Positions 7,751 to 35,752 of a stretch of DNA of 38,771 nt are shown in pieces (the stretch's first letter is position 1; each line of letters starts with the position of its first letter). The notes below the pieces were generated by a model. It was not told the DNA's origin, did not search any database, and saw only the letters and a list, made by a program, of their open reading frames with translations. Origin of the DNA: a virus; IMG/VR virus record IMGVR_UViG_3300006736_000020, positions 1 to 38,771 of that record. One strand, written 5' to 3'. The position numbers and the translations under genes were made by a program.

Positions 7751-7765
7751 AGGGAGAGGTGATAT

Positions 7766-10312: not shown

Positions 10313-10343
10313 AGGCAAATTTTTAAAATAAAGGAGAAAAAAA

Positions 10344-12365: not shown

Positions 12366-12400
12366 TTAACAATAGCAAACAATAGCAGAGCATATTGTCT

Positions 12401-12434
12401 GGCGGCCCGAATTTTTTCGGGCCGCCTTTTTTTT
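12401..12434 (+). terminator. Rho-independent terminator
   Basis: GGCGGCCCGAA (12401-12411) and TTCGGGCCGCC (12416-12426) make a perfect 11-bp stem with a TTTT loop, followed directly by eight T's (12427-12434). It lies 35 bases after the stop of the 10344 gene and is the only strong intrinsic terminator in the window. Confidence 0.95.
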
Positions 12435-12482
12435 ATTTTCAGTGAAGATGGTGTAAACTTAGCATGTTTATTGAGGTGTGAT

Positions 12483-12989
12483 TTGTCTACAAAGAAATTG
12501 CAAGATGTTAGTGAGAATATTCGTGAGCGGAGTGCTTCGATCGATCGTCATATAGAGTGGCTTAATAGTGCCGACGAGCAGTACAAGTTGACGGTAAGTG
12601 GAATTAACGAATTTGTTGAGAGAGTGTTTACCCAGGTAAGTGGTAATACAGATGCGGTTGCCGTGAACCAGCTGTTAGTCGATGCAATTTTAGAAATTCA
12701 ACGATATCTCGATGCTCGTCCCGAGACGATTCAAAATGACAAGATAGCTCTTGCGGCTCAGAAAGCGGCCTTTGAAGAATGTGTCGCCCTGTGTCAACCG
12801 GATGAGGAGCCGAAATCTGCGGGGTCACCTTCCGGCGAGAAAGATGCATTTGCTCGCATTAAGGATAGATTAGACCAGGATGGGAAGATGCCCTCTCGAA
12901 AGATGGGTGAACGTCCGGAGAAATTGAAAGACGTCAGAGGGCTTCAAGAGCAAATGATGGGCGAAGACATTCTAGAGGAAGATATTTAA
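12483..12989 (+). CDS. Unrecognised helical protein (168 aa)
   Basis: The frame opens with TTG at 12471, but the TTG at 12483 fits better: GAGGTG at 12473-12478 is a good ribosome site for it, and the product then begins MSTKKLQ. I do not recognise the family. The protein is mostly polar and helix-like, with a charged C-terminal third (EKDAFARIKDRLDQDGK, then an acidic EDILEEDI end). No cysteine pair, signal or membrane segment stands out. It is the first gene after the terminator, so a promoter should lie in 12435-12482, but I cannot identify a convincing one. It precedes the coupled structural cassette and could be a chaperone or minor structural component. Confidence 0.7.
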   Translation: MSTKKLQDVSENIRERSASIDRHIEWLNSADEQYKLTVSGINEFVERVFTQVSGNTDAVAVNQLLVDAILEIQRYLDARPETIQNDKIALAAQKAAFEECVALCQPDEEPKSAGSPSGEKDAFARIKDRLDQDGKMPSRKMGERPEKLKDVRGLQEQMMGEDILEEDI

Positions 12990-13006
12990 TGTCGGAGGGA
13001 TAATTT

Positions 13007-13915
13007 GTGGCCGGCATTTTAAATAGTAAAACTCGCGTTTTAGATACTGTGATCACGCCTACGGGTCGAGCCCAAATGGCCGATGGTGAGATGCAAATTA
13101 TGTATGTATCTTACTCTGATAGGCAAATGTTCTATCAGACCGGCTCTAATGGTGAACTTTTTGATCCGGGCGATCGCCTTTATTTTGAAGCATATTCTAT
13201 TGATTCTGATCTTATTATTCCTGAGACGGATAGCGGTGGAAATTTGGTCCCTTTTACGACCGACACCTTCAACTTGTATGGTGGGCGTGTAGTGAGTGGC
13301 AGTCAGCTTCAACAAGATGTTTCACTTTATGCGGAAGAACTCACGGCCGATTCATTAAAGAGTTTCCAGCGGCAGATGGTGCTCGGCACTCGCAATTTAA
13401 TGAAAAATGAAATTATAGATGCGTTTACACTCACTCCTACAACGGCATCATTTTACATAAGCGCAGAATTGTCCAATCTTGGCGATACTATCGTGACAGC
13501 GAGCCTTGATGACGTTGAATGTTTATGGCAAGATTATCGAGTGGCTAGAGCTCCTAATTATCGATATCTCCCACCCCAAATGTATGCGCTTCCGAACGAA
13601 GTTACCGGTAGTGCATTGGGAAAATATACGAAAATCAATCAAGATCCGCCGGCAGACTACGACGCCGTTTTAAAAAATCTAAAAGATCAACAATTGCTAA
13701 AGTTTTCGTTTTCAAATACTCGTACTACTAATGATCTGTTGGGACAAATGTTTGAAGTGAGTGGTGACTCACTAACGAAATTAATTGTAATCGATGGTGG
13801 AACTTATCCAATAAATGGAGGAGTTGATCCACACGTTTTTTATGCTGGAAAGATGTATCGAGATACCAAGGGATGCTTGACGTTTGCAAATCTTTTTACA
13901 CTGGTGTTTGAGTAA
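13007..13915 (+). CDS. Virion structural protein with ILxSxxxVxDxxxTxxGR head domain
   Basis: GTG start at 13007 with a strong GGAGGGATAA ribosome site. The first 40 residues (GILNSKTRVLDTVITPTGR, then MADGE, then YVSYSDRQMFY) match in pattern the start of the 22004 gene (GFLDHSTNNIIVDAVLTDKGR). That head domain is known to me from structural proteins of marine T4-like phages with no assigned function. The other 260 residues are unrecognised. The stop codon shares one base with the next start (TAATG), beginning a chain of four coupled genes. Likely a tail or baseplate-associated component; the exact place is unknown. Confidence 0.72.
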   Translation: MAGILNSKTRVLDTVITPTGRAQMADGEMQIMYVSYSDRQMFYQTGSNGELFDPGDRLYFEAYSIDSDLIIPETDSGGNLVPFTTDTFNLYGGRVVSGSQLQQDVSLYAEELTADSLKSFQRQMVLGTRNLMKNEIIDAFTLTPTTASFYISAELSNLGDTIVTASLDDVECLWQDYRVARAPNYRYLPPQMYALPNEVTGSALGKYTKINQDPPADYDAVLKNLKDQQLLKFSFSNTRTTNDLLGQMFEVSGDSLTKLIVIDGGTYPINGGVDPHVFYAGKMYRDTKGCLTFANLFTLVFE

Positions 13916-16335: not shown

Positions 16336-19300
16336 TGGCAATAACATCTAAAACAGTCTCAGCACCAAAAACGTCAACTTCGGCATCGAAAGCCCGGGTA
16401 CCCGCAAGTTATAGCACTGGAAAAGCAGGTTCTGCGCCCAAGGTTCGGGGCAATATCGCAAAAACAATTGCGCGATCTTCTAAACGGATGCATCAGGCGG
16501 CCAAAATTACAGACCAGCGTCCGGAAATTTTGGCAATGCTTGATTTTAAACCACTTTATGCAACGGGTGGCGATTTAACTCTGGCCGGAAAAATGTTCAA
16601 GGCTCGTGTAAGTGAAAGAAGCCAAACGTTGGAGGCCATTCGGGATATGTTGACTGAGTTGGAAGATACTCTGCCAGACGAATTTACGGCTGCCACGAAT
16701 CAATACGCCAGCGCTCTTGCTGCCACAGAAGCCGATATCGCGCTGCTTAAGTTGATGATTTTATTGCGGGAATATGCAACACATTCCGCTCGATTTGTAG
16801 ATTTTAAAGGTGAATACGAACCTCCGGAAGAGCTGGAGGTTGATTTGTTTGGAGTCAATGTAGCCAGTCAAATTAGAAATATTTTGGGAATTAAGAGCTC
16901 CAAAAATAGAAACTCGTTTTGGAAAACAGCTGCTCCACCATTTTTACAGATATTATCCGACATTCCGTTGTGTAGCTATGCGATTATTCCCTCACAGATG
17001 CAGAAAAACAAGCGGACCGCTGGTGCAACCGAGGGAGTAGCAAAGAGATTTAAGTCTAAAATTCGTGAGAGATTGCCGGTTTTAACGACGGGATTTGTGG
17101 TACGAGATATGGTCGCATCTTATGAGTTCACGAAACTATCCATTGGTGATGAAGTAGACGACGATTTTCTTGCTATTTGTGAAAGCGCCCTTGGCTCTAA
17201 ATTCATAACCTCAAATATAGATCAGCCATTTTCAGGGTTTAAAAACTTGATCGGTGAAGATTCGTGGGTTAAATTAAGGAGATCGACATATACAGAGAGC
17301 CTTCTCAACACCGAAACAAAAGCAAAAATTTCAGAAATGTTGAGAACAAAGAAAGGAATAATTGGAAAATCAAAAACCAAATTAAATCGCGAGACAATTT
17401 TTCTACCGTTAAAGGCAACGACCTCGTATGGAACCTCGGAATATTTAACAATAGAAGGATTAGTTGACGAGGCGTTTTCTGGTCCGGATCCATTAAATTT
17501 TGATGAATTTAATGAAACTTTGGGTGACTTCACCCAGTCAATGCATGATTTAGAGACATTTGGAAAGACAATGTTTCGGTTAGGTGAAAAAGCTGATGGT
17601 TATGCCGATCCACGAGATTATGCGCTTGTTGCGGACGAAATGCCTTTTAATTTGGGTCCTGCTGCCGCGGTAATTCTCGATGTTTGGAACCGCCGATTTG
17701 TGAGCGCTTTTTATTCGGCTGCTTATAGCGAAATTGATGAATATCTTTCTCCTGAACACATGATGTATAACCGAATGATCGCGTGGCTCATCATTCGTGA
17801 TGATTATGAGACGGCTTATGGCTTCGTATCTGCATTGGTGAGTGATTACGAAAATGGCTTTTTAACTGCGTCCGGTTTGCCGGAGGAAATCGTTCTTGAC
17901 GAAGAGACAAATGAGACAGAAATGTCGCCAACAGCATATGTTTTGCCAGGAACGTCAACTCCAGCCAGCCTTGATACCGTTGGTACCCGCTTGGGCTCTA
18001 AGCTTTCTGCAATGTCAGATTGGTTTAATGAGAAGAGTTCGTATTCCCCCAAGATTGATACCCAAAAATCGTACGATGACGGTTATCCGTATCCCAAGGA
18101 AGGTTATAATCTGGCTAATCGTATGTTCGGATCGGCACAGAATGGAGATAGACGTTACGTTAACCCAATGTTTGTAGGTTATTTGTTTTTTACAGAAAAT
18201 AATCGGACCGTTAAAGGCTGGCGTGGAATAAAGATTGCTTCGGCAGAAATTATTGATACTATTATGGAGATAATGGGTGCATTGATGTCGCCGCTTCATG
18301 AAGTTGAAGCAGTTCCTGATGGCGATCCAATTTTCCCATCGTTGACCGAAAGTAAATCGCCTTATGGGTCGGGTTCATGGTCATTTTGTGATCCCGCGTA
18401 TGAGTCTATGGCTACCGAAATGTGGGTTCCAACAATTGAGGCATGGCATGATCTCTTTGCTCGTAAAACATCTCGAGAAACGCGGTTTAGAAATGCTAAT
18501 TTTAAAAATCACGCGAAAAATATAATGCGTGCACTTGCCGCGCTAATGTCGAATTTTGATATGGTTAAAATCTTTTCTGCCGGAAGCGGTGATCCGGCCG
18601 ATATCGCAGAAGGAGGACTTGGAGATCTTGAGTGGACGTCAGGGACAACTAGGTCGTATAGCACCCAAGTGGCGTCCATTGGCCTCGCCGCATCATCCAC
18701 TCAATCTCATGAGGGTGTGGGACATGTTTCATTTTTTAAGAACGTGCGTGACTCGGTAGATAATTTACTTGCGAGCAGTTGGGATGATTTAGAAGATATT
18801 GATTACACTGAAGCAGAAGGAGTCGGAGCGAGCTGGGCCAACAAAAGGTTGAACGCGATGCATAAAGGAATGAAAGAATTTCTTCTTGAATCTCACGAGA
18901 ATGATGTTGCATTGGAACTTTTGTATGATTTCGTTGGTGATTATGCAACTAGGGTAGACAATTATAGCGCCGCCGTTCAGGGGTTGGTTGAAGGTGAAGA
19001 TTCTGCTCTTGCAACGTTTGTTGAATCTATTAGAGAAACCGGCGATGCAGGAATTGATTTGTTACAAAATCTCTCTCCAAACCAGCTTGCGTTAAAGCAA
19101 ATTGCGTTGGCAGAAGAAAGAGGTGATGAAGATAATGCGTTTTTACCAACGTTGGCAATTTTGACAAAATCAGAAATAAAGGCAGTTCGACTTCTTGCTA
19201 GAGAAACGAAGGCTGTGGCTCCTGAAGGTGATAATGCAAAGATAATTTTGGTAGGATTACCGGCTGGTATGTTTGAAACATTAGATATCGATAATGATTT

Positions 19301-20192
19301 TGCGGTACGGGTGAGCTATGTTGACATCGAATACCCTCAAATAGTATTTCGGGGTCGTATGTATCCGTTTTATAAAGATGTATACGTTGATCCTGATGAT
19401 TTAGAGAAGAGTCTTAGTGGAGTTGATACTTTTGAAGAACTCGTAAAGAAAGTACGCTTCTCAAAACTGGTTGTTGAAGTTGAAGAATCAAACGACACGT
19501 CGGCTTCTATCGAGGTCAGTGATGATATCAAAACAAAGCGTGCTAGAACAAAAACAATGATTCCATATTCAAATCACGCCGCATCAGAAATTCTTAAAAT
19601 ATATTGTAGAATTATGCTTGGTCTAAATTTTGCAGAGTCTGCATTTTTAGGGACTGCCGAAGGAATTCAGATTCCGATCAATGATTACGCCGCAGATCTT
19701 GCCGGTGCCATGGCTGCTGGTTTGGAGACGATAGGCGAATTTTCTGAGGATTTAGCAGCGTCTGCAACGAGTGTTCTTTCGGAACTTTCTGTTATTGAAG
19801 ATGATGCATTTGTATCTGGCGAACTTGAGGCAGTTGATGAAGCGTTATTGACGAATCTAAGAGATGCATTTCAAACTCGCTTATTCAGCGCAGGGGTAAT
19901 GAGAAGCCGGGTAATGTCGGCAAAAATGTTTGATCGAATTTTTGCTTTAGCTGTAGATCCTGACGAATTTTATATTGTAGCCCCCGATGATACCGATGTA
20001 TCGGGTGTTACGACTCCGCAACTAATTTTGGATTTTTATCTTCAAAAAGGAATAATTGAAGAGACCGGAGAGGATGCTCCATTTCGTTATAAGCTTGCTC
20101 CGCGAACAACCGCAGAGGGTCGAATGGCATTTGGAAAGTTTTTCGTGTCAATAGTGTCTACGCCCACAAACCTAGATAGGACTTTTGAATAA
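16335..20192 (+). CDS. Very large unrecognised structural protein (1285 aa)
   Basis: It starts at an ATG overlapping the previous stop (TAATG) with only a distant GAGG, so translation is probably coupled. The N-terminal 50 residues are basic, Ser/Thr/Ala/Lys-rich and probably disordered. The rest is a mixture of helical and acidic stretches. No signal peptide, membrane span, catalytic motif or repeat unit stands out. It is the middle member of the four-gene coupled cassette, and its size suggests a scaffold of the baseplate or a neck/tail accessory, but this is inference from position only. I cannot name the family. Confidence 0.65.
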   Translation: MAITSKTVSAPKTSTSASKARVPASYSTGKAGSAPKVRGNIAKTIARSSKRMHQAAKITDQRPEILAMLDFKPLYATGGDLTLAGKMFKARVSERSQTLEAIRDMLTELEDTLPDEFTAATNQYASALAATEADIALLKLMILLREYATHSARFVDFKGEYEPPEELEVDLFGVNVASQIRNILGIKSSKNRNSFWKTAAPPFLQILSDIPLCSYAIIPSQMQKNKRTAGATEGVAKRFKSKIRERLPVLTTGFVVRDMVASYEFTKLSIGDEVDDDFLAICESALGSKFITSNIDQPFSGFKNLIGEDSWVKLRRSTYTESLLNTETKAKISEMLRTKKGIIGKSKTKLNRETIFLPLKATTSYGTSEYLTIEGLVDEAFSGPDPLNFDEFNETLGDFTQSMHDLETFGKTMFRLGEKADGYADPRDYALVADEMPFNLGPAAAVILDVWNRRFVSAFYSAAYSEIDEYLSPEHMMYNRMIAWLIIRDDYETAYGFVSALVSDYENGFLTASGLPEEIVLDEETNETEMSPTAYVLPGTSTPASLDTVGTRLGSKLSAMSDWFNEKSSYSPKIDTQKSYDDGYPYPKEGYNLANRMFGSAQNGDRRYVNPMFVGYLFFTENNRTVKGWRGIKIASAEIIDTIMEIMGALMSPLHEVEAVPDGDPIFPSLTESKSPYGSGSWSFCDPAYESMATEMWVPTIEAWHDLFARKTSRETRFRNANFKNHAKNIMRALAALMSNFDMVKIFSAGSGDPADIAEGGLGDLEWTSGTTRSYSTQVASIGLAASSTQSHEGVGHVSFFKNVRDSVDNLLASSWDDLEDIDYTEAEGVGASWANKRLNAMHKGMKEFLLESHENDVALELLYDFVGDYATRVDNYSAAVQGLVEGEDSALATFVESIRETGDAGIDLLQNLSPNQLALKQIALAEERGDEDNAFLPTLAILTKSEIKAVRLLARETKAVAPEGDNAKIILVGLPAGMFETLDIDNDFAVRVSYVDIEYPQIVFRGRMYPFYKDVYVDPDDLEKSLSGVDTFEELVKKVRFSKLVVEVEESNDTSASIEVSDDIKTKRARTKTMIPYSNHAASEILKIYCRIMLGLNFAESAFLGTAEGIQIPINDYAADLAGAMAAGLETIGEFSEDLAASATSVLSELSVIEDDAFVSGELEAVDEALLTNLRDAFQTRLFSAGVMRSRVMSAKMFDRIFALAVDPDEFYIVAPDDTDVSGVTTPQLILDFYLQKGIIEETGEDAPFRYKLAPRTTAEGRMAFGKFFVSIVSTPTNLDRTFE

Positions 20193-24086: not shown

Positions 24087-26897
24087 ATGTCATTTATACG
24101 AATTACGAAAGCAAATATCGACACGTCAGTGTTGGAGCTCCACCCAAGTCGTAGCTTTAGCTCTTCTTCGATAGGCGGAGTAACAGGTAGTGTTAGGGTA
24201 ATAGCCCAATCGTCTCCGTTTTTTAAAGAAACGTCAAAGAATGGTCCTTTTGTTGAGGCTCCAGTTGATGCTTCCTCTATTGAAGAATTTCGGGACGCGG
24301 CATTTGGTGGTATTTACAGTGTTGATGCAATAGCAGCGACGGGTTCTGCGTCTGGCTCTTGGGCAGGCAACGCAACAGATCCTCTGGCTGATGGATTAAC
24401 TCTTACATTTCTCGATACTGCCGGTAATCTTTTTTCTGCAGTTACTGATACGGCCGTCGCGTATGGTAGCAGCACTGCCACCGTGATTGGAGTTGATCCC
24501 GGCACAGGAGTTACCGTCGGGTCTGATCTCGTAACTGCAGTTAAAAATTCTATAACACAGGCAAAACTTTATGGTGTTACGGCAACCTCCCACAACACCG
24601 ATTCTGGCAATAATGATAAATTGCAGGTAGAAACTCCCACAGCGGATGGCACAGGTTACACACTGCTTTTAACGGCTTCCGATATTGGTTACGCCGGCAA
24701 TCAGCCGCTCACCGGGACGTTGGTGGATTTAGCAAGTGCCGATCCTCCTCGTCTAACGGTTAAGGGCCTTGCCGGTGGTACCGGCGCAAATTTATCATCT
24801 GTCTTTGAGGGATATCTGACAAAGGTCAATGATGCTTCTCAAGCTGCTCGTCAAACCAAGTATGTCGAGGTTCTTCGTTTCATTCCGACTAACACATTTA
24901 CCAGCGATACAATTAGAAAGAACGTGTTCCGCAAAGTCTTGATGCCACAATATAAAACGGGTTATCCGGATCTTGAGTGGGCATTCATGAACAATCAAAG
25001 TTTTCACTTTGTTAGTTCGTCGGCATTTCCATCTGCGAGCGTTCTTATTTATCCTGATCCTCTCGACACGTATTTGGTCATGTCTGGATTGACACTTTCG
25101 TGTAACGTTAAATTGAGTCGGACAATAAGTGGATCACATCCATATACCGCAGGTACCACGATATTTAGATCCTCATCGTATGCATTGTCTGTGGTGACTG
25201 GCTCACAACGAGATCCTACGGGTAAGGTGACTGGTTTCCGTTTATTGCTCCAGCTTACAGGAGCATGTGATACTCCGGCACAGAACGTATCACTTACTTC
25301 TCTTCCTCCTTATACCTTTTTAAGTTCTGACAACGTTTTGAAATATAATCATTGGCACAATATTTGTGCTGCTTGGGGATCGGAACACAATTCGGGAACC
25401 GGCTCATTTTATATTGATGGAGTTAAAGATGCAGATGCCGAGTTTTGGGTCAGCACCGCATCCATCAATACATCTCCCGATGATTTTAATTCAGTTTTTA
25501 TTGGGGCCCATTATAATTCTTCCAGCTTGGCAATGAATGGTTATTTTAATTCTGCCGTTGCCGCAGTTGAGGGAATTTACGATGGAGGCGGACCCACGGT
25601 AGAGCCGCTGCCTGAAGCTTTAAAAGCTTCAAGATTCAATGGCGAAATTAACGATATCCGGATTTTTAGTGAAAGAATTTCTGATGATCGAATACTGACG
25701 GGTTCTATGTTTGGTTTAACCGAACTCCCTCAAGGTTTGGTTTTTTATGTTCCCGGATTTTTTGTAAAAGAGAGTCCCAAGCGGGAAGTTCTATTAACAC
25801 CGTTTCAGGCGACAACTGAAGCAACAGAGGAACCGTTCAACGTAAAACTTGCTTATGGTGTGAGGGGTCGAGATATTAATTTGCAAAATTATGTTCGTGA
25901 ATTCGTCCAAAAGAAACATCCTCGTCTTTATTATCTTACCGCCTCCACGATAGATATTTCCACAGAAACATATACGGCAAATTCTTTCTTGCTTGATATC
26001 GGTGCTAACCATAAGATGCACCGTGCGCGTGAAATGTTTATATTACCGGCAGATAATGGTAAATTCATTCCTGGATGGAACCTGTTGTCAAGTGGAACCG
26101 TTGCACAACGTCCAGCTTCTGGATCTGCGATGTCGTCATTTGTTAATGATTTGGGAAATTTGAATCTTTCCATCGTGACCCTCAACGACTTGATGCCCAC
26201 GTCGTCAATTTTTGAAGGCTTGACACAAGCAAACAGCGATGGTACTGACAATACGGCCAATAGTGGTATTTTGCAGGAAATTATGGGTTCTAGTCCGGAG
26301 TCAGCCGGTGTAGATCCTGGGTCGGGTTACACAATTTTGCAACGAACCCGTGATAATTCATCAAATGCTGTCGTTATTTTTGATGCCTGTAACTTGTTTT
26401 ATGGTAAAAGAATGATGCCGGGATCTATAAGAATTCACGATAGTAATTTGTCTGGCACGGCCGATACGCTTAATATGACAATTTTAGACAATGATCGAGG
26501 GACCCTTTATCGAGCAGACGCAGATTCGGTACATGCAACGTGGTGTGCAATTGGTTATACGATTTACGAAGAAGGGCTATCGGTTATAATGAATCCCAAT
26601 ATTCCATTTTTTGGAAGAGAGCAATTTTCTTTCATTATGCAGGGTGAGCAGAATATTCATATTCTTGAAGTTGTTACCCCCGCTTTGCAGGGGATGTTAA
26701 ATTCCAGTTCTAATCCGTCATTTATTGCAGGTACTCGAGACAACTACGCGTCAAGCTTCGAAGGTACGGCATTTGGAATTTCATCAATTCAATTCCATGA
26801 TAACAATATGAACGTTATAGCCCGAACAACGCTCGCTCAGCCTATACTCAAGACAGAATTTGATAAATATATGTTTAGGGTGAAATTTGATTTCTGA
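24087..26897 (+). CDS. LamG-like virion structural protein (936 aa)
   Basis: ATG at 24087 with a weak GGTG site; a nearby ATG at 24080 is out of frame. Residues about 99-233 hold a variant of the beta module seen in the 3 and 1607 genes (GLTLTF, GYAGNQ, GLAGGTG). Residues about 331-545 look like a LamG jelly roll: NHWHNICAAWGSEHN, SFYIDGVKD, VFIGAHY and FNGEINDIRIFSERISDDRI. The C-terminal 65 residues (SSNPSF, ISSIQFHDNNMNVIARTTLA, VKFDF) parallel the end of the 22738 product. Thus a mosaic adhesin or tail protein. It overlaps the resolvase start by 11 bases, joining the structural and DNA-metabolism blocks. Confidence 0.82.
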   Translation: MSFIRITKANIDTSVLELHPSRSFSSSSIGGVTGSVRVIAQSSPFFKETSKNGPFVEAPVDASSIEEFRDAAFGGIYSVDAIAATGSASGSWAGNATDPLADGLTLTFLDTAGNLFSAVTDTAVAYGSSTATVIGVDPGTGVTVGSDLVTAVKNSITQAKLYGVTATSHNTDSGNNDKLQVETPTADGTGYTLLLTASDIGYAGNQPLTGTLVDLASADPPRLTVKGLAGGTGANLSSVFEGYLTKVNDASQAARQTKYVEVLRFIPTNTFTSDTIRKNVFRKVLMPQYKTGYPDLEWAFMNNQSFHFVSSSAFPSASVLIYPDPLDTYLVMSGLTLSCNVKLSRTISGSHPYTAGTTIFRSSSYALSVVTGSQRDPTGKVTGFRLLLQLTGACDTPAQNVSLTSLPPYTFLSSDNVLKYNHWHNICAAWGSEHNSGTGSFYIDGVKDADAEFWVSTASINTSPDDFNSVFIGAHYNSSSLAMNGYFNSAVAAVEGIYDGGGPTVEPLPEALKASRFNGEINDIRIFSERISDDRILTGSMFGLTELPQGLVFYVPGFFVKESPKREVLLTPFQATTEATEEPFNVKLAYGVRGRDINLQNYVREFVQKKHPRLYYLTASTIDISTETYTANSFLLDIGANHKMHRAREMFILPADNGKFIPGWNLLSSGTVAQRPASGSAMSSFVNDLGNLNLSIVTLNDLMPTSSIFEGLTQANSDGTDNTANSGILQEIMGSSPESAGVDPGSGYTILQRTRDNSSNAVVIFDACNLFYGKRMMPGSIRIHDSNLSGTADTLNMTILDNDRGTLYRADADSVHATWCAIGYTIYEEGLSVIMNPNIPFFGREQFSFIMQGEQNIHILEVVTPALQGMLNSSSNPSFIAGTRDNYASSFEGTAFGISSIQFHDNNMNVIARTTLAQPILKTEFDKYMFRVKFDF

Positions 26898-27459
26898 GTA
26901 TGTGATAGGACTCGACATCTCCACGAGCTGTACAGGAATTGCAATAATTTCGACTAATGGTAAATTAGTGGATATGTTGACACATGTTCCTGAGGGTTCC
27001 ACACTGGTAGAGAAAGCTACTCATTTTAAAGAAATACTTGTTGATGAAATTGCCAAACAATACGCCGCGGATCCCACAGCAATATTCATTGAACAAAATC
27101 TCCAAAAGTTTCGACGCGGCTTTTCAAGCGCGCATGTGATTAACAAGCTTGCTCGTTATAATGGAATGTGTAGCTTGGTGGTTTATGAAGTTTTCGGTAT
27201 ACAGCCTGTTTACGTTAATGTGAATGAAGCTAGAAAAAAGCTTGGCATAAAAGTTAAGCGTGGCGAAAATGTCAAGGAAAAAGTGTTTGAATGGGCAAAA
27301 AATTCCACAGATTATGTATGGCCAACAAAAATATTGAAAGGAGGCCCCCGACGAGGGCTTGAAATTCTGCATCCTGGGTGTTATGATATGGCAGACGCTC
27401 TAGTTACGGCAACTGCTGGTCTCAGGATAGAGGATGACGCAAGAAGAGAGAGTACTTGA
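26887..27459 (+). CDS. RuvC-like Holliday-junction resolvase
   Basis: The 190-aa product shows the RNase H fold of RuvC-type resolvases: GLDISTSCTGIAII with Asp10 on the first strand, IFIEQN with Glu69, and a C-terminal YDMADALVTA with Asp167/Asp170 as the likely metal-binding acids. A TTG at 26887 preceded by AGGGTGA is the chosen start; GTG at 26902 is an alternative that keeps all motifs. RuvC-type enzymes cut four-way DNA junctions; here it probably debranches replicating phage DNA before packaging, the role taken in T4 by endonuclease VII, which has a different fold. It overlaps the primase gene by 26 bases. Confidence 0.85.
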   Translation: MISEYVIGLDISTSCTGIAIISTNGKLVDMLTHVPEGSTLVEKATHFKEILVDEIAKQYAADPTAIFIEQNLQKFRRGFSSAHVINKLARYNGMCSLVVYEVFGIQPVYVNVNEARKKLGIKVKRGENVKEKVFEWAKNSTDYVWPTKILKGGPRRGLEILHPGCYDMADALVTATAGLRIEDDARREST

Positions 27460-28414
27460 CATTCGAGTGAGCTTTTTAGCCGATACATTCGGTCGTGGAG
27501 TTCGTTCGGACATATCGTATGCGGTAGCATGCCCAAGTTGTTGCGCAGATGATCACCGCCAACATAAGAAAAAGTTGTCCATAAGATTGGACACTGGCAT
27601 GCATCATTGTTGGATCTGCGGTTTAAAGGGAAAAACACTACTTTATACAATAAAGAAATTTAAGCCATCGAGGCTAGAAGAATATAGTCGCATTTTTGAT
27701 GAAGCCGATTATCAATCGCATATAGCTCCGCATGAACTAATAGAAGAAAAATTAAAGCTTCCGGAAGGTTTTGTTCCACTGGCAATGCTACAAGATAGCA
27801 AAGACCCAGATGCCAGGGATGCAATTCGATATCTCGAAAATAGAGGTTTGGGGTGGAATGATTTTTTTAGGTGGCAGTTGGGAACGTGCGTAGCTGGCAA
27901 ATTTTGTAGGCGAATTATAATGCCGTCATTTGACAATACTGGAGAGTTGAATTATTTTACTGGTCGATCGATAGATTCTGATGGGGCTAAAAAATATATG
28001 AATTCAAAAGTCAAACGAAAAGATGTTATTTTTAACGAGTTGAACATTCGATGGGATGAACAGTTGGTTTTAGTAGAGGGACCTTTTGATCTTGTCAAGT
28101 GTGGCTGGAATTCGTCAGCATTATTGGGTTCGTTTTTAGATGAAAGTTATGCGCTTTTTAGAAAAATCGTAACCAACCATACGGATGTGATATTAGTGTT
28201 GGACCGGGAGGCTGCTAATAAAATGGCGAAAATAGCCGAAAGATTGACGGGCTATGGTATAAATGTAAAATGTGTAAATTTGGATAAATTTAATGATGTA
28301 GGTGAAATGTCGAAGGAAGATCTGCGACGAACTTTGGATGATGCGTATTTATGGTCGTCAACCTCAAAGCTTGAATCGTTAATAAGACAAATAAAAAGTG
28401 GATCAATTTTATAG
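27434..28414 (+). CDS. DnaG-like DNA primase (zinc ribbon + Toprim)
   Basis: 326 aa. The N-terminus has CPSC (Cys33, Cys36) and CWIC (Cys59, Cys62), a zinc ribbon for template recognition. The middle (FCRRIIMPSFDNTGELNYFT, then GRSIDS and KYMNS) is the primase core. The Toprim part has LVEGPFD with Glu215 and VILVLDREA with Asp257 and Glu259, where the classical DxD is DxE. T4 gp61 is the analogous enzyme. No helicase domain is attached, so the replicative helicase must be elsewhere. ATG at 27434 has AGGA six to seven bases before it and lies inside the resolvase gene; GTG at 27470 is a possible shorter start. Confidence 0.85.
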   Translation: MTQEERVLDIRVSFLADTFGRGVRSDISYAVACPSCCADDHRQHKKKLSIRLDTGMHHCWICGLKGKTLLYTIKKFKPSRLEEYSRIFDEADYQSHIAPHELIEEKLKLPEGFVPLAMLQDSKDPDARDAIRYLENRGLGWNDFFRWQLGTCVAGKFCRRIIMPSFDNTGELNYFTGRSIDSDGAKKYMNSKVKRKDVIFNELNIRWDEQLVLVEGPFDLVKCGWNSSALLGSFLDESYALFRKIVTNHTDVILVLDREAANKMAKIAERLTGYGINVKCVNLDKFNDVGEMSKEDLRRTLDDAYLWSSTSKLESLIRQIKSGSIL

Positions 28415-28428
28415 GAAAGTTATGATTT

Positions 28429-31400
28429 ATGGTTAGAATTGCTCATTTAGCTGATATTCATTTTCGAGGTCTCTCTCGGCATGCAGAATATCGAAAAAGT
28501 TTTGAAGAGTTTTTTAAGCAATGTGACAAGTTCAAACCCGATCATATTGTGATTGCTGGGGATATCGTTCATTCAAAAACTCATGGTATTTCTCCGGAAC
28601 TTGTTGATATATTGACGTGGAGCTTTAGGGGGATGGCGTCACGAGCTCAAACCCATATTATGCTGGGAAATCACGATGGCTTAATTACAAACAAAGATCG
28701 TCAGGATGCTATAAGCCCTATAATTACCGCCATTAATCATCCAAATCTGCACCTGTATAAAGATTCAGGTGTTTATGATTTTGCAGATGGAATGTGTTTC
28801 TGCGTATTTTCGTGTTTTGACGAGGAGGGATGGAAGGATTTGTCTCCCCATGAGGGGAAGGTGAATATTGCTGTATATCACGGAGCCGTCAGAGGCAGCG
28901 CTATAGAAAGTGATTGGCTCATTGAGGGAGAGGTCGACGTTGATATTTTTGACGCATATGATTTTGCGTTATTGGGTGATATTCATAAAAGGCAATATTT
29001 GAACGACGCTAAAACCATTGCATACCCTGGCTCAATGATTCAGCAAAATTATGGTGAGTCGATAGAAAAAGGTTATTTGTTGTGGGATATTACAAGTCCG
29101 AAAGAATACACTAGTCGTTTCATTGAGGTTCCTAACTTGCAACCTTTTGTGACCCTTGATTGGAATTCTATTGATACCAAGAAGGTAAGTGGTGGACTCA
29201 TTCCAATGGGATCGCGCGTAAGAATCAAGCACCCTCCAAGTGTTCCCCGCGCTGAAATAAATCAATTTAAGTCATTGTTGATGGAGAAGCTCGGCGCTAC
29301 TGAAATTGTTACTCGCGTGTTGAAACCAGAGCAGGAAGATTCTGTTATCACCATTAACGAGAATGTTTTAGATCTCCGAGATCCGCAGGTTTTATTCACA
29401 TTAATTCGAGATTATCACTCCAATATTTCCGATGAAGATATTTGGAAAGAAATTGAGCTGCGCTTACGGAAATATTGCGAAATGATACCAAAAACCGACA
29501 CAGCCCGAGGTACTCGGTGGTCGATTAACAGAATTAAATTTGACAATATTTTTGGGTACGGCAAAGGAAATGAAGTTAATTTTGATTCTTTAGCGGGCGT
29601 GATTGGTTTGTTTGGAGCTAATCGTGTTGGAAAGAGTTCTTTGGCAGGCGCGCTCACGTATGGATTATTTAACACGAGTGACAGAGGCGCTTTAAAGAAT
29701 TTGCACGTGATTAACACAAGGCGAAATCACTGCCTCGCCGAAGTAGACGTTAGTGTTAATTCGAAGCGCTATAGAGTTCAGCGCCAATCTATAAAGCGTA
29801 CCGCCAGATCTGGGACGGTAAGTGCTAGCACTCATCTTAATTTATTTGAAATTGATCCGGCTGGCGAAATTATTAAAGATACGTCAGGCGAGCAACGCCG
29901 CGATACTGATCGGTTTTTAAGGCACCTCATCGGTGATAGAGAAGATTTTTTTCTGACATCGTTTGCGACCCAAGGAGAGATGAACGCTTTTATTAAAGAG
30001 CGCGCTACGCAACGAAAGGCAATTTTGGCAAATTTTCTGGACTTGGCTGTTTTTGACACGTTGTATGAACTAATCAAGCGAGACGCCACTGAAATTAAAA
30101 CACTTTTGTCGAAGGTGCCAGAACGAAATTGGCGATCTATTATTGCCGATCTCAAGAATCAGCTAAAAGAGTACAAGATAAAAATTAAAAACATCGAATT
30201 AGTGATGACGTCAACACAATCAAGATTGGATGGTTTAAAACTAGAATTACGTGAAGCTAATGGTGAACATGTTGTTACGGTAAACGATATTCATCGGAAG
30301 GAGAACAAGCTGCAGATTGTTAAAAATCGGATCATTGAAACTTCGGCGCGACTTCAGGCTCATGAAGAGACGTATCAGCATCAGATTCGAAAACTAGAAA
30401 AGGCCCGAATTTTGGAACGCTCGTTTCCACTTCCACAGCTTGAAGCCCGCCTAAACGACCAGCGCGACATCGAACGCGCGCTTTTAACTGTTCGGCATAA
30501 CACGGAAATTGAACAAAAGGAGTTACAACGACAGAAGGGATCAGCTAAAATTTTAGAGACAGTTCCCTGTGGGACAAGTTTCCCGCAATGTAAATTCATC
30601 AAGCGCTCGCACAAAGATGCCGCTTTAATCGATGAGCAGATTGGTCGAGTTAAAGAAACAAATTCTTCCTTGCGAATTTTGGAACAAAATTTACAAAATT
30701 TGATAGCCGAAAATCTACAAGAAAAAATTGACAAATACAAAGAAATTTTTAAACAAGTTAACGATCTTAAATTGAGTCAATCGGGCATTGAATTGGAGAT
30801 GAATAAGCTTAAACGGGAATTAAACGACTTATCCGAATCAGAAATTTTATTGGACGATGAAATATCGGTAATGAGAACACAAGTGGTCCAAAAGACTGAG
30901 ATGCCTGAAATTTCTTCTCTTCATGAAAAAATTTATGAATTGGAGGAAGAACTGAAGGCAGATGATGCATCACGATTGTCACTGAGTGAACTGGTTGGTC
31001 GCACCAAAACTGAAATGGGCCACGTTGCTAAAGAACAGGCTAAATATGTTACGCTGCTTAAAGAGTGGAAGGTTTACGATTTATTGATGACTGCAACAAG
31101 TAAGCGCGGGGTACCTGTCCATATATTGAGTTCTCGTCTTCCCAAGATTAATGCCGAAATTGCAAAAATCTTGGGAACAAATATTAATTTTGCCATCGAA
31201 CTTGAAGCACCCATCGATTCAAATGCAATGAATATCTTTATTGATTATGGCGATTCTCGTCGTCCAATTGAATGTGCTTCTGGAATGGAAAAAATGCTCG
31301 CTTCTCTCGTAATTCGCGTGGCACTAATTAATATCTCGACACTGCCCAAATCAGATATCCTGATTATTGACGAAGGCTTTGGTACGCTGGACGAAGTCAG

Positions 31401-31551
31401 CATTGTTGTTTGTAATATGCTATTACAAAGTTTAAAAAAGTATTTTAAGTGTATATTGGTTATATCTCATATCGAAGGCATTAAAGATAGTGTGGATAAT
31501 TTAATTGAAATACAAAAAGAGGGTGTTGATGCCAAAATTTGTATCGTTTGA
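28429..31551 (+). CDS. SbcD-SbcC (gp47-gp46) fusion recombination nuclease
   Basis: One 1040-aa frame contains both subunits of the Mre11-Rad50 type complex. Residues 1-350 are the metallophosphatase: LADIHF (Asp9, His11), AGDIVH (Asp45), GNHD (Asn81-Asp83), YHGAV (His151), GDIHK (Asp184, His186). From about 364 the ATPase begins: GANRVGKSS (Walker A, Lys402), coiled coil about 530-900 with a CGTSFPQC hook (Cys714, Cys721), SGME signature at 951-954, and LIIDEGFGTLDE (Walker B, Asp981, Glu982). In T4 these are separate genes 47 and 46 in this order. Likely to resect DNA ends for recombination-dependent replication. ATG at 28429 follows AGGAAAG by about ten bases; an ATG at 28422 stops at once. 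Confidence 0.93.
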   Translation: MVRIAHLADIHFRGLSRHAEYRKSFEEFFKQCDKFKPDHIVIAGDIVHSKTHGISPELVDILTWSFRGMASRAQTHIMLGNHDGLITNKDRQDAISPIITAINHPNLHLYKDSGVYDFADGMCFCVFSCFDEEGWKDLSPHEGKVNIAVYHGAVRGSAIESDWLIEGEVDVDIFDAYDFALLGDIHKRQYLNDAKTIAYPGSMIQQNYGESIEKGYLLWDITSPKEYTSRFIEVPNLQPFVTLDWNSIDTKKVSGGLIPMGSRVRIKHPPSVPRAEINQFKSLLMEKLGATEIVTRVLKPEQEDSVITINENVLDLRDPQVLFTLIRDYHSNISDEDIWKEIELRLRKYCEMIPKTDTARGTRWSINRIKFDNIFGYGKGNEVNFDSLAGVIGLFGANRVGKSSLAGALTYGLFNTSDRGALKNLHVINTRRNHCLAEVDVSVNSKRYRVQRQSIKRTARSGTVSASTHLNLFEIDPAGEIIKDTSGEQRRDTDRFLRHLIGDREDFFLTSFATQGEMNAFIKERATQRKAILANFLDLAVFDTLYELIKRDATEIKTLLSKVPERNWRSIIADLKNQLKEYKIKIKNIELVMTSTQSRLDGLKLELREANGEHVVTVNDIHRKENKLQIVKNRIIETSARLQAHEETYQHQIRKLEKARILERSFPLPQLEARLNDQRDIERALLTVRHNTEIEQKELQRQKGSAKILETVPCGTSFPQCKFIKRSHKDAALIDEQIGRVKETNSSLRILEQNLQNLIAENLQEKIDKYKEIFKQVNDLKLSQSGIELEMNKLKRELNDLSESEILLDDEISVMRTQVVQKTEMPEISSLHEKIYELEEELKADDASRLSLSELVGRTKTEMGHVAKEQAKYVTLLKEWKVYDLLMTATSKRGVPVHILSSRLPKINAEIAKILGTNINFAIELEAPIDSNAMNIFIDYGDSRRPIECASGMEKMLASLVIRVALINISTLPKSDILIIDEGFGTLDEVSIVVCNMLLQSLKKYFKCILVISHIEGIKDSVDNLIEIQKEGVDAKICIV

Positions 31552-31802: not shown

Positions 31803-32177
31803 ATGCTTACTACAGAACAAGTTAGGGCTTTGGGAGAAATTACCAATTCATCATGGGGAAGCTCATCAGATGGAACATATGGTTGTAAAGTATTATTTGA
31901 AGGGAACCGTCTGAAGATCACGTATAGTACTATGGCTTATTTTGCATCCGAACGCGCGATGCGAGACCAGACAGTTCGTTTGGCGGAAGAATCCAATGAT
32001 AGAATGGCAGAGTTTCTCAAAGTAATAAAAGATAGATTCAAAGAATCAACCGGCACTACACTCAAAGTGGAGCAGCTGTCGGATAGAGATTCTCTGGAAA
32101 TGACAAATGGTTCCACCATTAATCCACGAAGAGTGTGTGTTTTCCGGCGAAACATTATTTTAGAGTTAGATGCCTGA
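31803..32177 (+). CDS. Conserved small phage protein before terminase (124 aa)
   Basis: ATG at 31803 with GCGAGG upstream; the reading frame is open further left but without a suitable site. The product starts MLTTEQVRALGEITNSSWGS and has a helical middle with many charged residues (ASERAMRDQTVRLAEESNDR) and an NPRRVCVFRRNIILEL end. The pattern is familiar from hypothetical proteins of marine T4-like phages. The stop shares a base with the terminase start (TGATG), so the two are probably co-translated. A small-terminase role is possible by position, but I see no helix-turn-helix or coiled-coil signature to support it. Confidence 0.72.
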   Translation: MLTTEQVRALGEITNSSWGSSSDGTYGCKVLFEGNRLKITYSTMAYFASERAMRDQTVRLAEESNDRMAEFLKVIKDRFKESTGTTLKVEQLSDRDSLEMTNGSTINPRRVCVFRRNIILELDA

Positions 32178-33784
32178 TGGCAATCAACAAGAAGCGCCAA
32201 ATTCAAGAAATCGTTAAATGTGGAAAAGAACCACTTTATTTCGTCAACCGCTATGTAAAAATCCAACATCCAGAGCGGGGAACCATATCGTTTGATACAT
32301 ACCCATTTCAGGATGAATGTGTTGAAAATTTTCTTGATCACAGATTTAACGTAATTCTAAAGTCTCGACAGTTGGGACTTTCTACTCTTGTGGCCGCGTA
32401 TTCTGCGTGGATGGCTCTTTTTTATAAAGATAAAAATATTCTTGTTATTGCTACAAAATTAAGCGTAGCAATGAATTTTATCAAAAAAGTAAAAACCGCT
32501 ATTCGCTATCTTCCAAAGTGGCTTGTTTTGCCAGAAATTGTGAGTAATAACAAACAGAGTATTGAGTTTAGCAACGGGTCGAGCGTGAAGGCAATTCCAA
32601 CGTCAGATGATGCAGGTCGATCAGAGGCTCTTTCGTTATTAATTGTTGATGAGGCTGCATTTGTGAGAAATTTTGACGAGCTGTGGATGGGTCTCTATCC
32701 AACTTTATCTACTGGAGGTCGGGCAATTATTTTATCGACACCAAATGGTGTCGGCGGCCAATATTACGATATCTACATGAAGGCCGTGGCCGGAGAGAAT
32801 CCATTCCACACGATCAAGCTTCCTTGGGACGTTCACCCCGAAAGAGATGAAGAGTGGTTTGATACCGAGGCAAAAAACTTGAGTGAAAAACAAATCGCTC
32901 AGGAACTTATGTGTGATTTCGCGGCCGCAGGTGATACGTTTTTGACTGCAAGAGAGATTGAATACATCCGCCAGACCGTGAGCCAACCCCTGGAGAGATG
33001 GGGTCCTGAAAATGCGGTATGGGTATGGAAATACTCGCTTTCAGAACACAAATATATTATTTCTGCCGACGTAGCGCGCGGCGATGGCGCCGATTATTCG
33101 GCGTTTCATGTTATTGACGCCACTGAATCGGAGGTTGTAGCTGAGTTTAAGTGCAAGATTCCGCCTGATCAATTTGCGGTAGTTTTGGCCGAGGCAGGTA
33201 AGCGTTATAATGACGCTATAATTGCTCCCGAGAGTAACACGTATGGATATGCGGTTCTTATGAAGCTCAAGGAACTCCAATATCCTGCTATTTATTTTGC
33301 GCACGAGAAAGATCGCTATGCAGTTATGTATGGCAATGGAAATATAGGAAAAGGTGGTTTTTCCACTTCTGGCGTATCAAGACCAAAAATTTTAACAAAG
33401 CTTGAAGAAGTAATTAGAAATCGCCAAATAGTGATCCGTTCTTCGAGATTATACGAAGAACTCAAGACGTTTATTTGGAAAGGTCAAAAACCTCAGGCTA
33501 TGCGAGGTAAAAACGATGATTTAGTGATTTCGTTGGCTATTGGAGTGTGGTTATACGATACAGCGGCCGGCTATTCGAAACAAAATGTCGATTTAAATGC
33601 TGCAATGCTGGAAGCTATGAGTGTCAACACGTCCGGTCCATCAGGTATTTTAGATCCCAGAATGAAAACGCTTAGAGGGGTAAATCCGTTCAAGCCAATA
33701 ATTTTAGATGGATCTTTGCAACCTGCTGAGAGTTCAAATGGTCAAGAAAATCCTCTCTCCGATTTCCTGTGGCTGTTAAAGTAG
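32177..33784 (+). CDS. terL: Terminase large subunit (gp17-like)
   Basis: 535 aa from ATG at 32177, in a TGATG overlap with the preceding gene. The ATPase half has a deviant Walker A KSRQLGLST (residues 62-70, with the lysine at the front rather than before the Ser/Thr pair), Walker B LLIVDEAAF (Asp158, Glu159) and STPNG coupling motif (187-191). The RNase H-like nuclease half has ISADVARGDGADYS (Asp298), IAPESNTYG (Glu352) and GKNDDLVISLA (Asp448). It cuts concatemers and drives DNA into the prohead through the portal encoded next. T4 gp17 is 610 aa; this one is somewhat shorter. Headful packaging is inferred by analogy. Confidence 0.95.
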   Translation: MAINKKRQIQEIVKCGKEPLYFVNRYVKIQHPERGTISFDTYPFQDECVENFLDHRFNVILKSRQLGLSTLVAAYSAWMALFYKDKNILVIATKLSVAMNFIKKVKTAIRYLPKWLVLPEIVSNNKQSIEFSNGSSVKAIPTSDDAGRSEALSLLIVDEAAFVRNFDELWMGLYPTLSTGGRAIILSTPNGVGGQYYDIYMKAVAGENPFHTIKLPWDVHPERDEEWFDTEAKNLSEKQIAQELMCDFAAAGDTFLTAREIEYIRQTVSQPLERWGPENAVWVWKYSLSEHKYIISADVARGDGADYSAFHVIDATESEVVAEFKCKIPPDQFAVVLAEAGKRYNDAIIAPESNTYGYAVLMKLKELQYPAIYFAHEKDRYAVMYGNGNIGKGGFSTSGVSRPKILTKLEEVIRNRQIVIRSSRLYEELKTFIWKGQKPQAMRGKNDDLVISLAIGVWLYDTAAGYSKQNVDLNAAMLEAMSVNTSGPSGILDPRMKTLRGVNPFKPIILDGSLQPAESSNGQENPLSDFLWLLK

Positions 33785-33814: not shown

Positions 33815-35752
33815 ATGGCTGAACAGGAACCAGGGCTTTTTAGAAGGCTAACGCAGTTGTTTAGGGATGGACCGACCATTAAGCGTCGAGTCCGTGCTTT
33901 TAATGGACAAGATCCGACCCATGGGTCTTCGTTGCAACAATTCCGAAAATCCCATTCGGACGTTTATTCGAACACGATGAGTGCGTATGGCTCGTTTGAC
34001 AGAATGTCCCGTTATTCGGATTTTTCGGAGATGGAAGCAACCCCTGAAATTGCTAGCGCACTGGATATTTACGCTGAAGAAACGGTATCGGCAGATGATA
34101 AAGGTAACGTTTTACACGTGTATTCAGAAAATAGGAAAATTAGAGAGCTTCTGCATACCTTGTTTTATGATACGTTGAACGTCGATTTTAATTTGCCGAT
34201 GTGGGTTAGAAATCTTTGTAAATATGGCGATTTTTTCCTTTTTAATGATGTTTCTCCCGAGTTCGGAGTGATAGCAGCGTACCCAATTCCAATTGCAGAA
34301 ATTGAAAGAGAGGAAGGGTACGATCCTGAAGATCCAGCGGCGGTTCGTTTTAGGTGGATGACACAAGGAAATCAGATTTTAGAGAACTGGCAGATAACGC
34401 ATTTTCGTCTTTTGGGTAATGACGCCTTTTTGCCTTACGGATCGAGTGTTTTAGAGTCATCTCGACGAATTTGGCGACAATTAATTCTTATTGAAGACGC
34501 TATGCTTGTTTATCGCATAATTAGGGCTCCAGAAAGACGGGTTTTTAAAATTGACGTCGGAAATGTCCCACCAGAGGACGTTGCAACATATTTAGAACAG
34601 GCAAAAAATTCATTAAAGCGCGAGCCGGTCATTAACAAATCTGATGGCCGCGTAGATCTGCGATATAATCCGTTAAGTGTCGATGAAGACTATTTTATAC
34701 CCGTAAGAGGTGGTGATTCAGGTACTGACATCCAGTCTTTGGCCGGAGGACAAAATACTTCCGCAATTGAGGACGTACAGTACATTCAAGCCAAGCTTTT
34801 TGCTGCATTGAAGATTCCGAAGGCATATTTGGGTTATGATGAGTCTATTGGTTCCAAAGCGACACTAGCCCAAGAAGATATTCGTTTTTCGAGAGGAATT
34901 GCTAGAATTCAAAGGACTGTTATAGCCGAACTTAACAAAATTGCGATGATTCACCTTTATGCCCATGGATTTGCAGGTGAATCATTAATTGATTTCGATC
35001 TAAAGCTGTCGAATCCTTCCTCAATAGCCCAACAACAAAAATTAGAGCTGATATCGACAAGGTTTGATATTGCTGGAAAGGTACCTGAAGGTATGTTGGA
35101 TCGGCGCTGGGTTCAAAAACACGTGTTGGGACTTAGTAATGAAGAAATCGACTTTGTGAACGAAGGCCGCGTTGAAGAAAAGCTTCTTGACGCCGAAGTC
35201 GAGGCAGCTGGAACTGGAGAAGAGGCCGGCGGCGAAGAAGGTGGCGGTGGTGAAGAAGGTGGCCTCTTCGCGGCCGATATTGCAACTGGAAAGTTGTTGA
35301 TTGGTGATCCGGACCTTGACGATGACGATTCCGACGATGATGACGACGATATTGATTTGCAACTCTCCATGGACGACGAAGATGCTCCAATTAAAGTTGA
35401 TAAGGCCGTTAAGAATGTTTTTGGTACCCGTCTAAAAAGGCGAAAGAACCGTAAGGGTCCCGCCTACACGCAAATGCCTGATTTTAAGAACATTGCTGGG
35501 GTGGGGTCTACTACTCGTTCACGAGACACAAGTAACCAACCCTATGATAATGATTACTTTAAGAATCCATTCGCCGAATCGTTAAACGCTGAGCTAGGAT
35601 TTTCAAATCCTCGTCCCAGAATGAGTCCTGATGTCACAAATGCGTTATCAAGCCTTGATAGCTTAATAAATAATTCTAGTACTGGGCTTCTTGCCGAGGA
35701 CATTGACGAAGACGTAATACCACCCGAGGAAGATCAAAATGGCACGCCATAA
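33815..35752 (+). CDS. Portal protein (gp20-like) with acidic C-terminal extension
   Basis: 645 aa, ATG at 33815 with a weak GGTGTTGAG site. The body is T4-type portal: SRYSDFSEMEATPEIASALD and IYAEETVSADDKGN, WVRNLCKYGDFFLFND, RAPERRVFKIDVGNVPP and KIPKAYLGYDESIGSKATLA motifs are diagnostic. The dodecameric portal forms the DNA channel and the terminase docking site. The C-terminus is long: about 462-485 is Gly/Glu-rich and about 501-513 almost all Asp, followed by a further 120 residues with a basic RLKRRKNRKG patch. T4 gp20 is 524 aa, so the extension is unusual. The gene overlaps the next one by 14 bases. Confidence 0.95.
   Translation: MAEQEPGLFRRLTQLFRDGPTIKRRVRAFNGQDPTHGSSLQQFRKSHSDVYSNTMSAYGSFDRMSRYSDFSEMEATPEIASALDIYAEETVSADDKGNVLHVYSENRKIRELLHTLFYDTLNVDFNLPMWVRNLCKYGDFFLFNDVSPEFGVIAAYPIPIAEIEREEGYDPEDPAAVRFRWMTQGNQILENWQITHFRLLGNDAFLPYGSSVLESSRRIWRQLILIEDAMLVYRIIRAPERRVFKIDVGNVPPEDVATYLEQAKNSLKREPVINKSDGRVDLRYNPLSVDEDYFIPVRGGDSGTDIQSLAGGQNTSAIEDVQYIQAKLFAALKIPKAYLGYDESIGSKATLAQEDIRFSRGIARIQRTVIAELNKIAMIHLYAHGFAGESLIDFDLKLSNPSSIAQQQKLELISTRFDIAGKVPEGMLDRRWVQKHVLGLSNEEIDFVNEGRVEEKLLDAEVEAAGTGEEAGGEEGGGGEEGGLFAADIATGKLLIGDPDLDDDDSDDDDDDIDLQLSMDDEDAPIKVDKAVKNVFGTRLKRRKNRKGPAYTQMPDFKNIAGVGSTTRSRDTSNQPYDNDYFKNPFAESLNAELGFSNPRPRMSPDVTNALSSLDSLINNSSTGLLAEDIDEDVIPPEEDQNGTP

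What the first reader, a model, noticed from the sequence alone, without database searches (positions are those of the whole stretch)
28429..31551. Single-chain SbcD-SbcC (gp47-gp46) fusion
The nuclease and ATPase subunits of the Mre11-Rad50 complex, encoded by separate genes in T4 and in bacteria, are here one 1040-residue frame with all catalytic motifs intact and only a short linker (about 350-364). A fusion fixes a 1:1 ratio and makes separate translation impossible. It may allow a different assembly from the usual M2R2 complex.
Basis: partly seen in the sequence, partly recalled or inferred. Interest (0 to 1): 0.75.

Follow-up and report, generated by a model that had tools for sequence, protein, structure and literature searches.

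The report
One-piece phage DNA-end repair enzyme
A marine-type phage makes the two halves of a universal DNA-end-processing machine (Mre11-Rad50) as one protein; such fusions have been known since 2011, but related uncultured phages turn out to use this form very widely and some have cut it again at a different place, which makes the value of the physical link testable.

Summary
Window 28429-31551 (+) is one intact 1040-codon frame with a complete SbcD/Mre11 part, a ~10-residue linker (353-362) and a complete SbcC/Rad50 part. The closest relative (81% identical) aligns without a gap and the linker codons show only synonymous changes, so the junction is real and under selection. Such fusions are already described (Yoshida 2011: Mimivirus R555, a Bacillus phage, plasmids, some eukaryotes). 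'All catalytic motifs intact' needs qualifying: Asp184 replaces Mre11 His206, the ABC signature reads SGME, the hook is CX6C. Nothing supports an assembly other than (MR)2.

Beyond the finding: of 120 IMG/VR loci chosen only by the SbcD motif GDIHKRQ, 66 are fused, 45 stop inside SbcD, 9 cannot be judged; none is split at the SbcD|SbcC boundary. In 44 of the 45 the break lies between the Mre11 nuclease core and its capping domain, so capping-HLH-Rad50 stays one chain. Other relatives are broken at the active site by homing-endonuclease-like insertions, or at the P-loop by an apparent split intein. The window protein is a new member of a known kind; the re-split relatives are the more interesting part.

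The parts
28413..28419 (+). AGGAAAG, ribosome-binding-type sequence 9 bases before the ATG
   Evidence: sequence read directly
28429..31551 (+). single-chain SbcD-SbcC (Mre11-Rad50) gene, 1040 aa
28429..29193 (+). Mre11 phosphoesterase (nuclease) core, residues 1-255; ligand positions D9 H11 D45 N81 H82 H151 D184 H186
   Evidence: Pfam Metallophos; alignments; fold match to Mre11/SbcD chains 3thn, 7dog, 7yzo_A; domain edge approximate
29194..29364 (+). Mre11 capping domain, residues ~256-312 (strand-helix-strand 263-297)
   Evidence: AlphaFold secondary structure; homologous stretch begins the second gene of the re-split relatives
29383..29484 (+). helix-loop-helix (Rad50-binding) segment, residues 319-352
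   Evidence: AlphaFold helices 319-329 and 336-352; equivalence to the Mre11 HLH inferred from position
29485..29514 (+). linker, residues 353-362 (PKTDTARGTR), under purifying selection
29515..30108 (+). Rad50 N-lobe, residues 363-560, Walker A GANRVGKSS (396-404), Q-loop Q515
   Evidence: Pfam AAA_23
30109..30561 (+). ascending coiled coil, residues 561-711
   Evidence: AlphaFold helices
30568..30591 (+). hook: C714-GTSFPQ-C721 (CX6C instead of CX2C)
   Evidence: CX6C in 75 of 78 aligned sequences; CX2C in most other fused phage proteins
30601..31098 (+). descending coiled coil, residues 725-890
   Evidence: AlphaFold helices
31099..31548 (+). Rad50 C-lobe, residues 891-1040: signature SGME (951-954), Walker B/D-loop IIDEGFGTLD, H-loop H1014
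26887..27459 (+). RuvC-like Holliday junction resolvase, upstream neighbour (homologue near the fusion in 64 of 88 loci)
   Evidence: PHROGs; synteny
27434..28414 (+). DnaG-type primase, directly upstream (homologue in 76 of 88 loci)
32135..33784 (+). T4-type large terminase, downstream neighbour (homologue in 84 of 88 loci)
33815..35752 (+). T4-type portal protein (homologue in 79 of 88 loci)

Best explanation
It is a phage-encoded, single-polypeptide Mre11-Rad50 (SbcCD) nuclease of the R555 (Mimivirus-type) fusion kind. Two copies most likely pair through their nuclease cores and their ATPase heads and form the usual (Mre11-Rad50)2 complex, each Mre11 helix-loop-helix docking on the coiled-coil base of the Rad50 domain to which the ~10-residue linker ties it. 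ATP-driven closing and opening of the heads would gate the nuclease, which trims or opens DNA ends. Its likely role is to make 3' single-stranded ends for the phage's RecA-type recombinase, in recombination-dependent replication and concatemer formation before packaging, as T4 gp46-gp47 does. Shown here: intact frame, domains, most catalytic residues, constrained linker, conserved neighbourhood, single copy per record in the fused viral records searched, RecA in most related records. Inferred: dimer architecture, nuclease and ATPase activity, role.
For: Domains and frame. AlphaFold model, mean pLDDT 82.7, with helix-loop-helix, 10-residue linker and Rad50 start in the expected order. Foldseek matches to Rad50/SbcC and to Mre11/SbcD chains and, over nearly the whole length, to giant-virus 'DNA repair' proteins of ~970-1390 aa (Tupanvirus E 1e-55, Harvfovirus, Yasminevirus, Catovirus) and to Tenacibaculum phages pT24 and PTm1. 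Asp184 and the histidine of the GDxxH motif are also described for R555 (PMC3175470). Purifying selection across the linker; 214-227 residue spacing. One fused copy and no second SbcCD match in the fused records of 94-289 kb searched whole. A strong RecA match in 13 of 14 window-clade records. Conserved order RuvC-primase-SbcDC-terminase-portal.
Against: No biochemistry. Only a monomer could be predicted, with pTM 0.48. Asp184, the SGME signature and the CX6C hook differ from every characterised Mre11-Rad50 that I know of, so rates, metal choice or hook dimerisation may differ. The window is a 38.8-kb fragment and does not itself show the recombinase. R555 was compared through the paper's text and through giant-virus relatives in the fold search, not by a direct alignment.
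Confidence: 0.8

Rival explanations
1. The fusion forms a different assembly (monomeric, domain-swapped in trans, or higher-order through the short linker).
For: Covalent linkage limits how the Rad50-binding segment can reach a neighbouring subunit; the hook is unusual (CX6C) in this sub-clade.
Against: Linker plus helix-loop-helix matches the geometry of separate-chain complexes as estimated in PMC3175470; spacing from active site to P-loop is nearly constant; a 1:1 ratio is the canonical ratio.
Confidence: 0.1
2. The nuclease centre is weakened by Asp184 and the protein acts mainly as an ATP-driven DNA tether or end sensor.
For: His206 is replaced by Asp in all aligned members of the clade where the column is filled, whereas all six separate-gene comparators have His.
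Against: All other ligands and catalytic His82 are retained; Asp is a good metal ligand, and strict conservation as Asp is not decay.
Confidence: 0.07
3. Assembly or sequencing artefact: a lost stop codon joins two genes.
For: Such joins may occur: Listeria phage LMTA-57 has one 1009-aa ORF where LMTA-34 has two genes.
Against: 77 distinct other contig ORFs with the same unbroken architecture, gapless alignment and linker under selection.
Confidence: 0.01
4. Internal initiation at M352 (29482) also yields a free Rad50 subunit, so the ratio is not fixed.
For: In-frame ATG directly before the linker, kept in L002 and L003.
Against: Met at this column in only 4 of 78 sequences; no clear ribosome-binding sequence before it.
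Confidence: 0.02

Closest known systems
Mimivirus R555-type Mre11/Rad50 fusion proteins (Yoshida, Claverie and Ogata 2011, PMC3175470)
   Same: N-terminal Mre11, C-terminal Rad50, one chain, helix-loop-helix and short linker between; GDxxH motif and Asp for His206 as described for R555; relatives abundant in aquatic viruses, which that paper predicted to be phages in part.
   Different: Shorter (1040 vs 1351 aa), phage-borne next to primase and terminase, CX6C hook; not in a eukaryotic virus.
Microcystis phage Mel-JY01 WWT39521 (1066 aa), uncultured phage LR756501 (1202 aa), Tenacibaculum phages pT24/PTm1 (~1310 aa)
   Same: Fused phage homologues; the Mel-JY01 gene also lies just downstream of a primase-like gene.
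   Different: 24-29% identity for the first two; CX2C hook in those two; longer coiled coils in some; pT24/PTm1 known here only from the fold search.
T4 gp47-gp46 and E. coli SbcD-SbcC
   Same: Same two domains, same order of genes, probable same reaction.
   Different: Separate genes (in T4 with 46.1 and 46.2 between), His at the Asp184 position, CX2C hook, outside the fused clade in the tree.
Re-split relatives in IMG/VR (e.g. L131, L126, L177)
   Same: Same clade, Asp184, helix-loop-helix joined to Rad50.
   Different: Nuclease core is a separate gene (~260-285 aa) and capping-HLH-Rad50 is a second gene (~790 aa), with small genes between.

Membership tests
Mre11/SbcD nucleases | Calcineurin-like phosphoesterase domain | tested here: met
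   PF00149 E 1.5e-9 over residues 3-175; fold match 3thn, TM 0.67 by target
Mre11/SbcD nucleases | Seven metal/catalytic residues including the GHxH motif | tested here: inconclusive
   All present except the His206 position, which is Asp184, an Asp kept throughout the clade
Mre11/SbcD nucleases | Capping domain and Rad50-binding helix-loop-helix | tested here: met
   AlphaFold strand-helix-strand 263-297 and helices 319-329, 336-352; function inferred
Rad50/SbcC ATPases | Split ABC ATPase with Walker A, Q-loop, signature, Walker B, H-loop around a coiled coil | tested here: met
   PF13476 E 5.9e-11; motifs present with signature SGME; coiled coil in model
Rad50/SbcC ATPases | CX2C zinc hook | tested here: not met
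   CX6C (C714, C721) at the hook tip; conserved in 75 of 78 sequences. The Moorella phage comparator also lacked a CX2C, so the feature varies within the family and the window protein is filed under the fusion kind, not as a canonical Rad50
R555-type Mre11/Rad50 fusions | Both domains in one chain, Mre11 first, 9-12 residue linker | tested here: met
   linker 353-362
R555-type Mre11/Rad50 fusions | Outside the canonical cellular and T4-like clades | tested here: met
   Tree: fused plus re-split proteins form one group, SH-aLRT 99, apart from the six separate-gene comparators. Long outgroup branches; R555 itself not in the tree
R555-type Mre11/Rad50 fusions | Direct sequence relation to R555 | not tested
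   R555 sequence not at hand; near full-length fold matches to giant-virus proteins support it
Mre11-Rad50 complex | 2:2 assembly and ATP-dependent nuclease activity | not testable with these tools
   needs protein

The most novel reading that the evidence does not exclude
Single-chain SbcDC is the ancestral form of a large, almost uncultured phage clade marked by Asp184; one lineage later cut it again, at the Mre11 core|capping boundary instead of the old SbcD|SbcC boundary, so that capping-HLH-Rad50 is the unit selection keeps together while the nuclease core is detachable. Mobile elements (homing endonucleases at the GDIH active-site motif, a split intein at the P-loop) keep breaking the same protein.
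Probability: 0.6. Interest if true: 0.6.

Novelty: new member of a known kind. Interest (0 to 1): 0.42.

Why it matters
Mre11-Rad50 is universal, and how the nuclease half is coupled to the ATPase half is still debated. A natural one-chain form, plus relatives cut at another domain border, gives ready-made material to test which contacts must be covalent or intramolecular. It also supports the 2011 prediction that aquatic phages are a main home of Mre11/Rad50 fusions: only a handful of fused forms were found in 50,697 phage records, against hundreds of relatives in IMG/VR.

Tried and rejected
Frameshift or lost-stop artefact: rejected by gapless relatives and linker codon changes. Internal start for a free SbcC: M352 not conserved. 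A canonical split (stop between SbcD and SbcC) in the clade: none among 111 classifiable loci found by the GDIHKRQ motif; note that this motif selects for Asp184, so separate-gene forms with GHxH are excluded by design. Listeria LMTA-57 as support for the clade: rejected; it is a separate join within the Listeria phages, keeps His, and sits with LMTA-34 in the tree. Claim that the re-split group lies inside the fused group: favoured by the trees, but the AU test did not reject the alternative (p = 0.074), so it is stated as likely, not shown. Bacillus phage 0305phi8-36, the phage fusion known in 2011, is not in the collection under the accession tried. Genome scan: only 4 loci in bacterial/archaeal assemblies, all MAG contigs, possibly phage. 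Two family searches failed on wrong coordinates and were repeated.

Full report
What is there. The window is a 38,771-bp IMG/VR virus record. ORF 28429..31551 (+), ATG start after AGGAAAG, encodes 1040 aa. Pfam gives Metallophos at 3-175 and AAA_23 at 368-587; PHROGs gives the SbcD family at 1-357 and the SbcC family at 365-1032. The closest solved relatives by sequence are Rad50 ATPases and Mre11/SbcD chains. Neighbours are a RuvC-like resolvase, a DnaG-type primase, a T4-type terminase and a T4-type portal, so this is a tailed phage with a T4-like packaging motor.

The junction is real. The relative L002 (81% identity) aligns over 3120 nt without an indel; linker codons 353-362 show 6 synonymous and no non-synonymous changes, and around the junction 27 of 31 differences are at third positions. 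82 full-length unbroken ORFs were found in the first loci fetched (78 distinct sequences with the window). The spacing from the GDIH motif to the Walker A lysine stays within 214-227 residues. AlphaFold (31 sequences, pLDDT 82.7, pTM 0.48) gives capping-type strand-helix-strand 263-297, helices 319-329 and 336-352, then Rad50 from 363, with coiled-coil arms on either side of a hook at 712-724. Foldseek finds Rad50/SbcC and Mre11/SbcD structures and, over nearly the full length, giant-virus proteins and Tenacibaculum phage proteins long enough to be fusions.

Catalytic details. In the 78 aligned sequences D9, H11, D45, N81, H82, H151, D184, H186, G401, K402, S951, G952, M953, E954, D981, E982 and H1014 are invariant. 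In a wider set, Asp184 is found in every fused and re-split protein where the column is filled, while T4, Stenotrophomonas, Vibrio, Listeria and Moorella phages and E. coli have His. Yoshida et al. report the same Asp for R555. The ABC signature is SGM-E in most fused proteins and SGY/SGF-E in the re-split group, against mostly S-x-G-E in the separate-gene set. The CX6C hook belongs to the window's own sub-clade; other fused proteins mostly have CX2C.

How common. Among 50,697 phage records, 108 match and 4 cover at least 80% of the query: Mel-JY01, LR756508 (interrupted) and two Listeria LMTA-57 records; LR756501/LR756503 are also fused although only 63% was aligned. A second scan used only the SbcD motif GDIHKRQ, without regard to fusion: of 120 loci, 48 carry the complete fusion, 18 a fusion cut by the locus end, 45 stop inside SbcD and 9 cannot be judged. 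The motif itself selects for the Asp184 clade, so this is a proportion within that clade only.

The re-split group. In 44 of those 45 the first gene ends 78-84 residues after the start of GDIHKRQ, at the end of the nuclease core, and where the locus is long enough the second gene starts with the capping domain and helix-loop-helix and runs on into Rad50. Between them lies ~0.2-2.8 kb with small genes that recur between contigs. Pfam/PHROGs confirm a phosphoesterase in gene A and an SbcC-like protein in gene B; AlphaFold of gene B (lower confidence, pLDDT 68.7) gives the same order strand-helix-strand, two helices, Rad50. In the tree the group is one branch (SH-aLRT 99), next to the fused LR756501 and inside the fused assemblage, but the alternative that keeps all fused proteins together is not rejected (p = 0.074). 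The simplest reading is fusion first, then fission at a new border.

Other breaks. L009 (56% identical to the window protein in its larger piece) carries ~34 extra codons with one in-frame stop directly after GDIHKRQ. In LR756508 the gene is interrupted at the same place by a 305-aa zinc-finger/TnsA-like nuclease ORF, and in L110 by a 306-aa DUF559/Vsr-like ORF that is 26% identical to it; this looks like homing-endonuclease insertion at an active-site motif. In L091-L096 the fused gene ends in the P-loop with VGK|CVHP.TKINI.., and in L096 the rest begins ~4.9 kb downstream with ..YYANNIAVHN|SNILNSITYG, which has the marks of a split intein with a short N-part; Pfam did not flag it, so it rests on the junction residues and on the conserved N-part in six contigs.

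Mechanism and context. The fused viral records searched whole (94-289 kb) have one SbcDC match and no separate pair; L009's record has its one gene in two pieces and the three re-split records have the two genes. 13 of 14 window-clade records also have a strong RecA match. The order RuvC, primase, SbcDC, terminase, portal is widely kept. With the known roles of T4 gp46-gp47 in recombination-dependent replication (discussed in PMC3175470) and of SbcCD as an ATP-dependent end/hairpin nuclease (PMC6265447), the likely job is end processing for RecA-dependent replication and concatemer formation. The activity and the dimer are inferred.

Novelty. Mre11/Rad50 fusions are in the literature since 2011; I found no later paper in the held library on the phage single-chain form. 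The window protein is a new member of that kind. The re-split architecture and the apparent split intein were not found described in the searches made, which cover open-licence papers only.

Noticed in passing
L131:4198-8310, L126, L154, L177, L190, L193, L211, L212, L218 and others: Re-split SbcDC: Mre11 nuclease core as one gene, capping-HLH-Rad50 as a second gene, with a few recurring small genes between. In this group the Q-loop Gln and the D-loop Asp positions hold other residues.
   Followed up: partly
L096:5992-7329 and L096:12236-13237; same N-part in L091-L095: Apparent split intein in the P-loop of a distant fused SbcDC; the halves lie ~4.9 kb apart with other genes between.
   Followed up: partly
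L009:5540-5700; L006:4665-5582; L110:11229-12146 (-): SbcDC genes broken directly after the GDIHKRQ active-site motif, in two of the three by Vsr/TnsA-like, zinc-finger-bearing ORFs; resembles homing-endonuclease 'genes in pieces'.
   Followed up: partly
L228:3434-6463 versus L230:2905-5935: Listeria phage LMTA-57 has one 1009-aa SbcD-SbcC ORF where the near-identical LMTA-34 has two genes: a very recent join or a sequencing error, unrelated to the window clade.
   Followed up: partly
window 30568-30591: Hook motif CX6C instead of CX2C, conserved in the window's sub-clade; whether it binds zinc is unknown.
   Followed up: partly
window 63-16335: Six of the large ORFs in this stretch (515, 709, 673, 172, 302 and 806 aa) match no PHROG; probably virion proteins. 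The ORFs of 2047 aa (1607-7750) and 1285 aa (16335-20192) were not searched.
   Followed up: no
window 24087-26897: 936-aa protein with a weak concanavalin-type (Laminin_G_3) match, a homologue lying upstream of the fusion in 61 of 88 loci; tail or fibre candidate.
   Followed up: no
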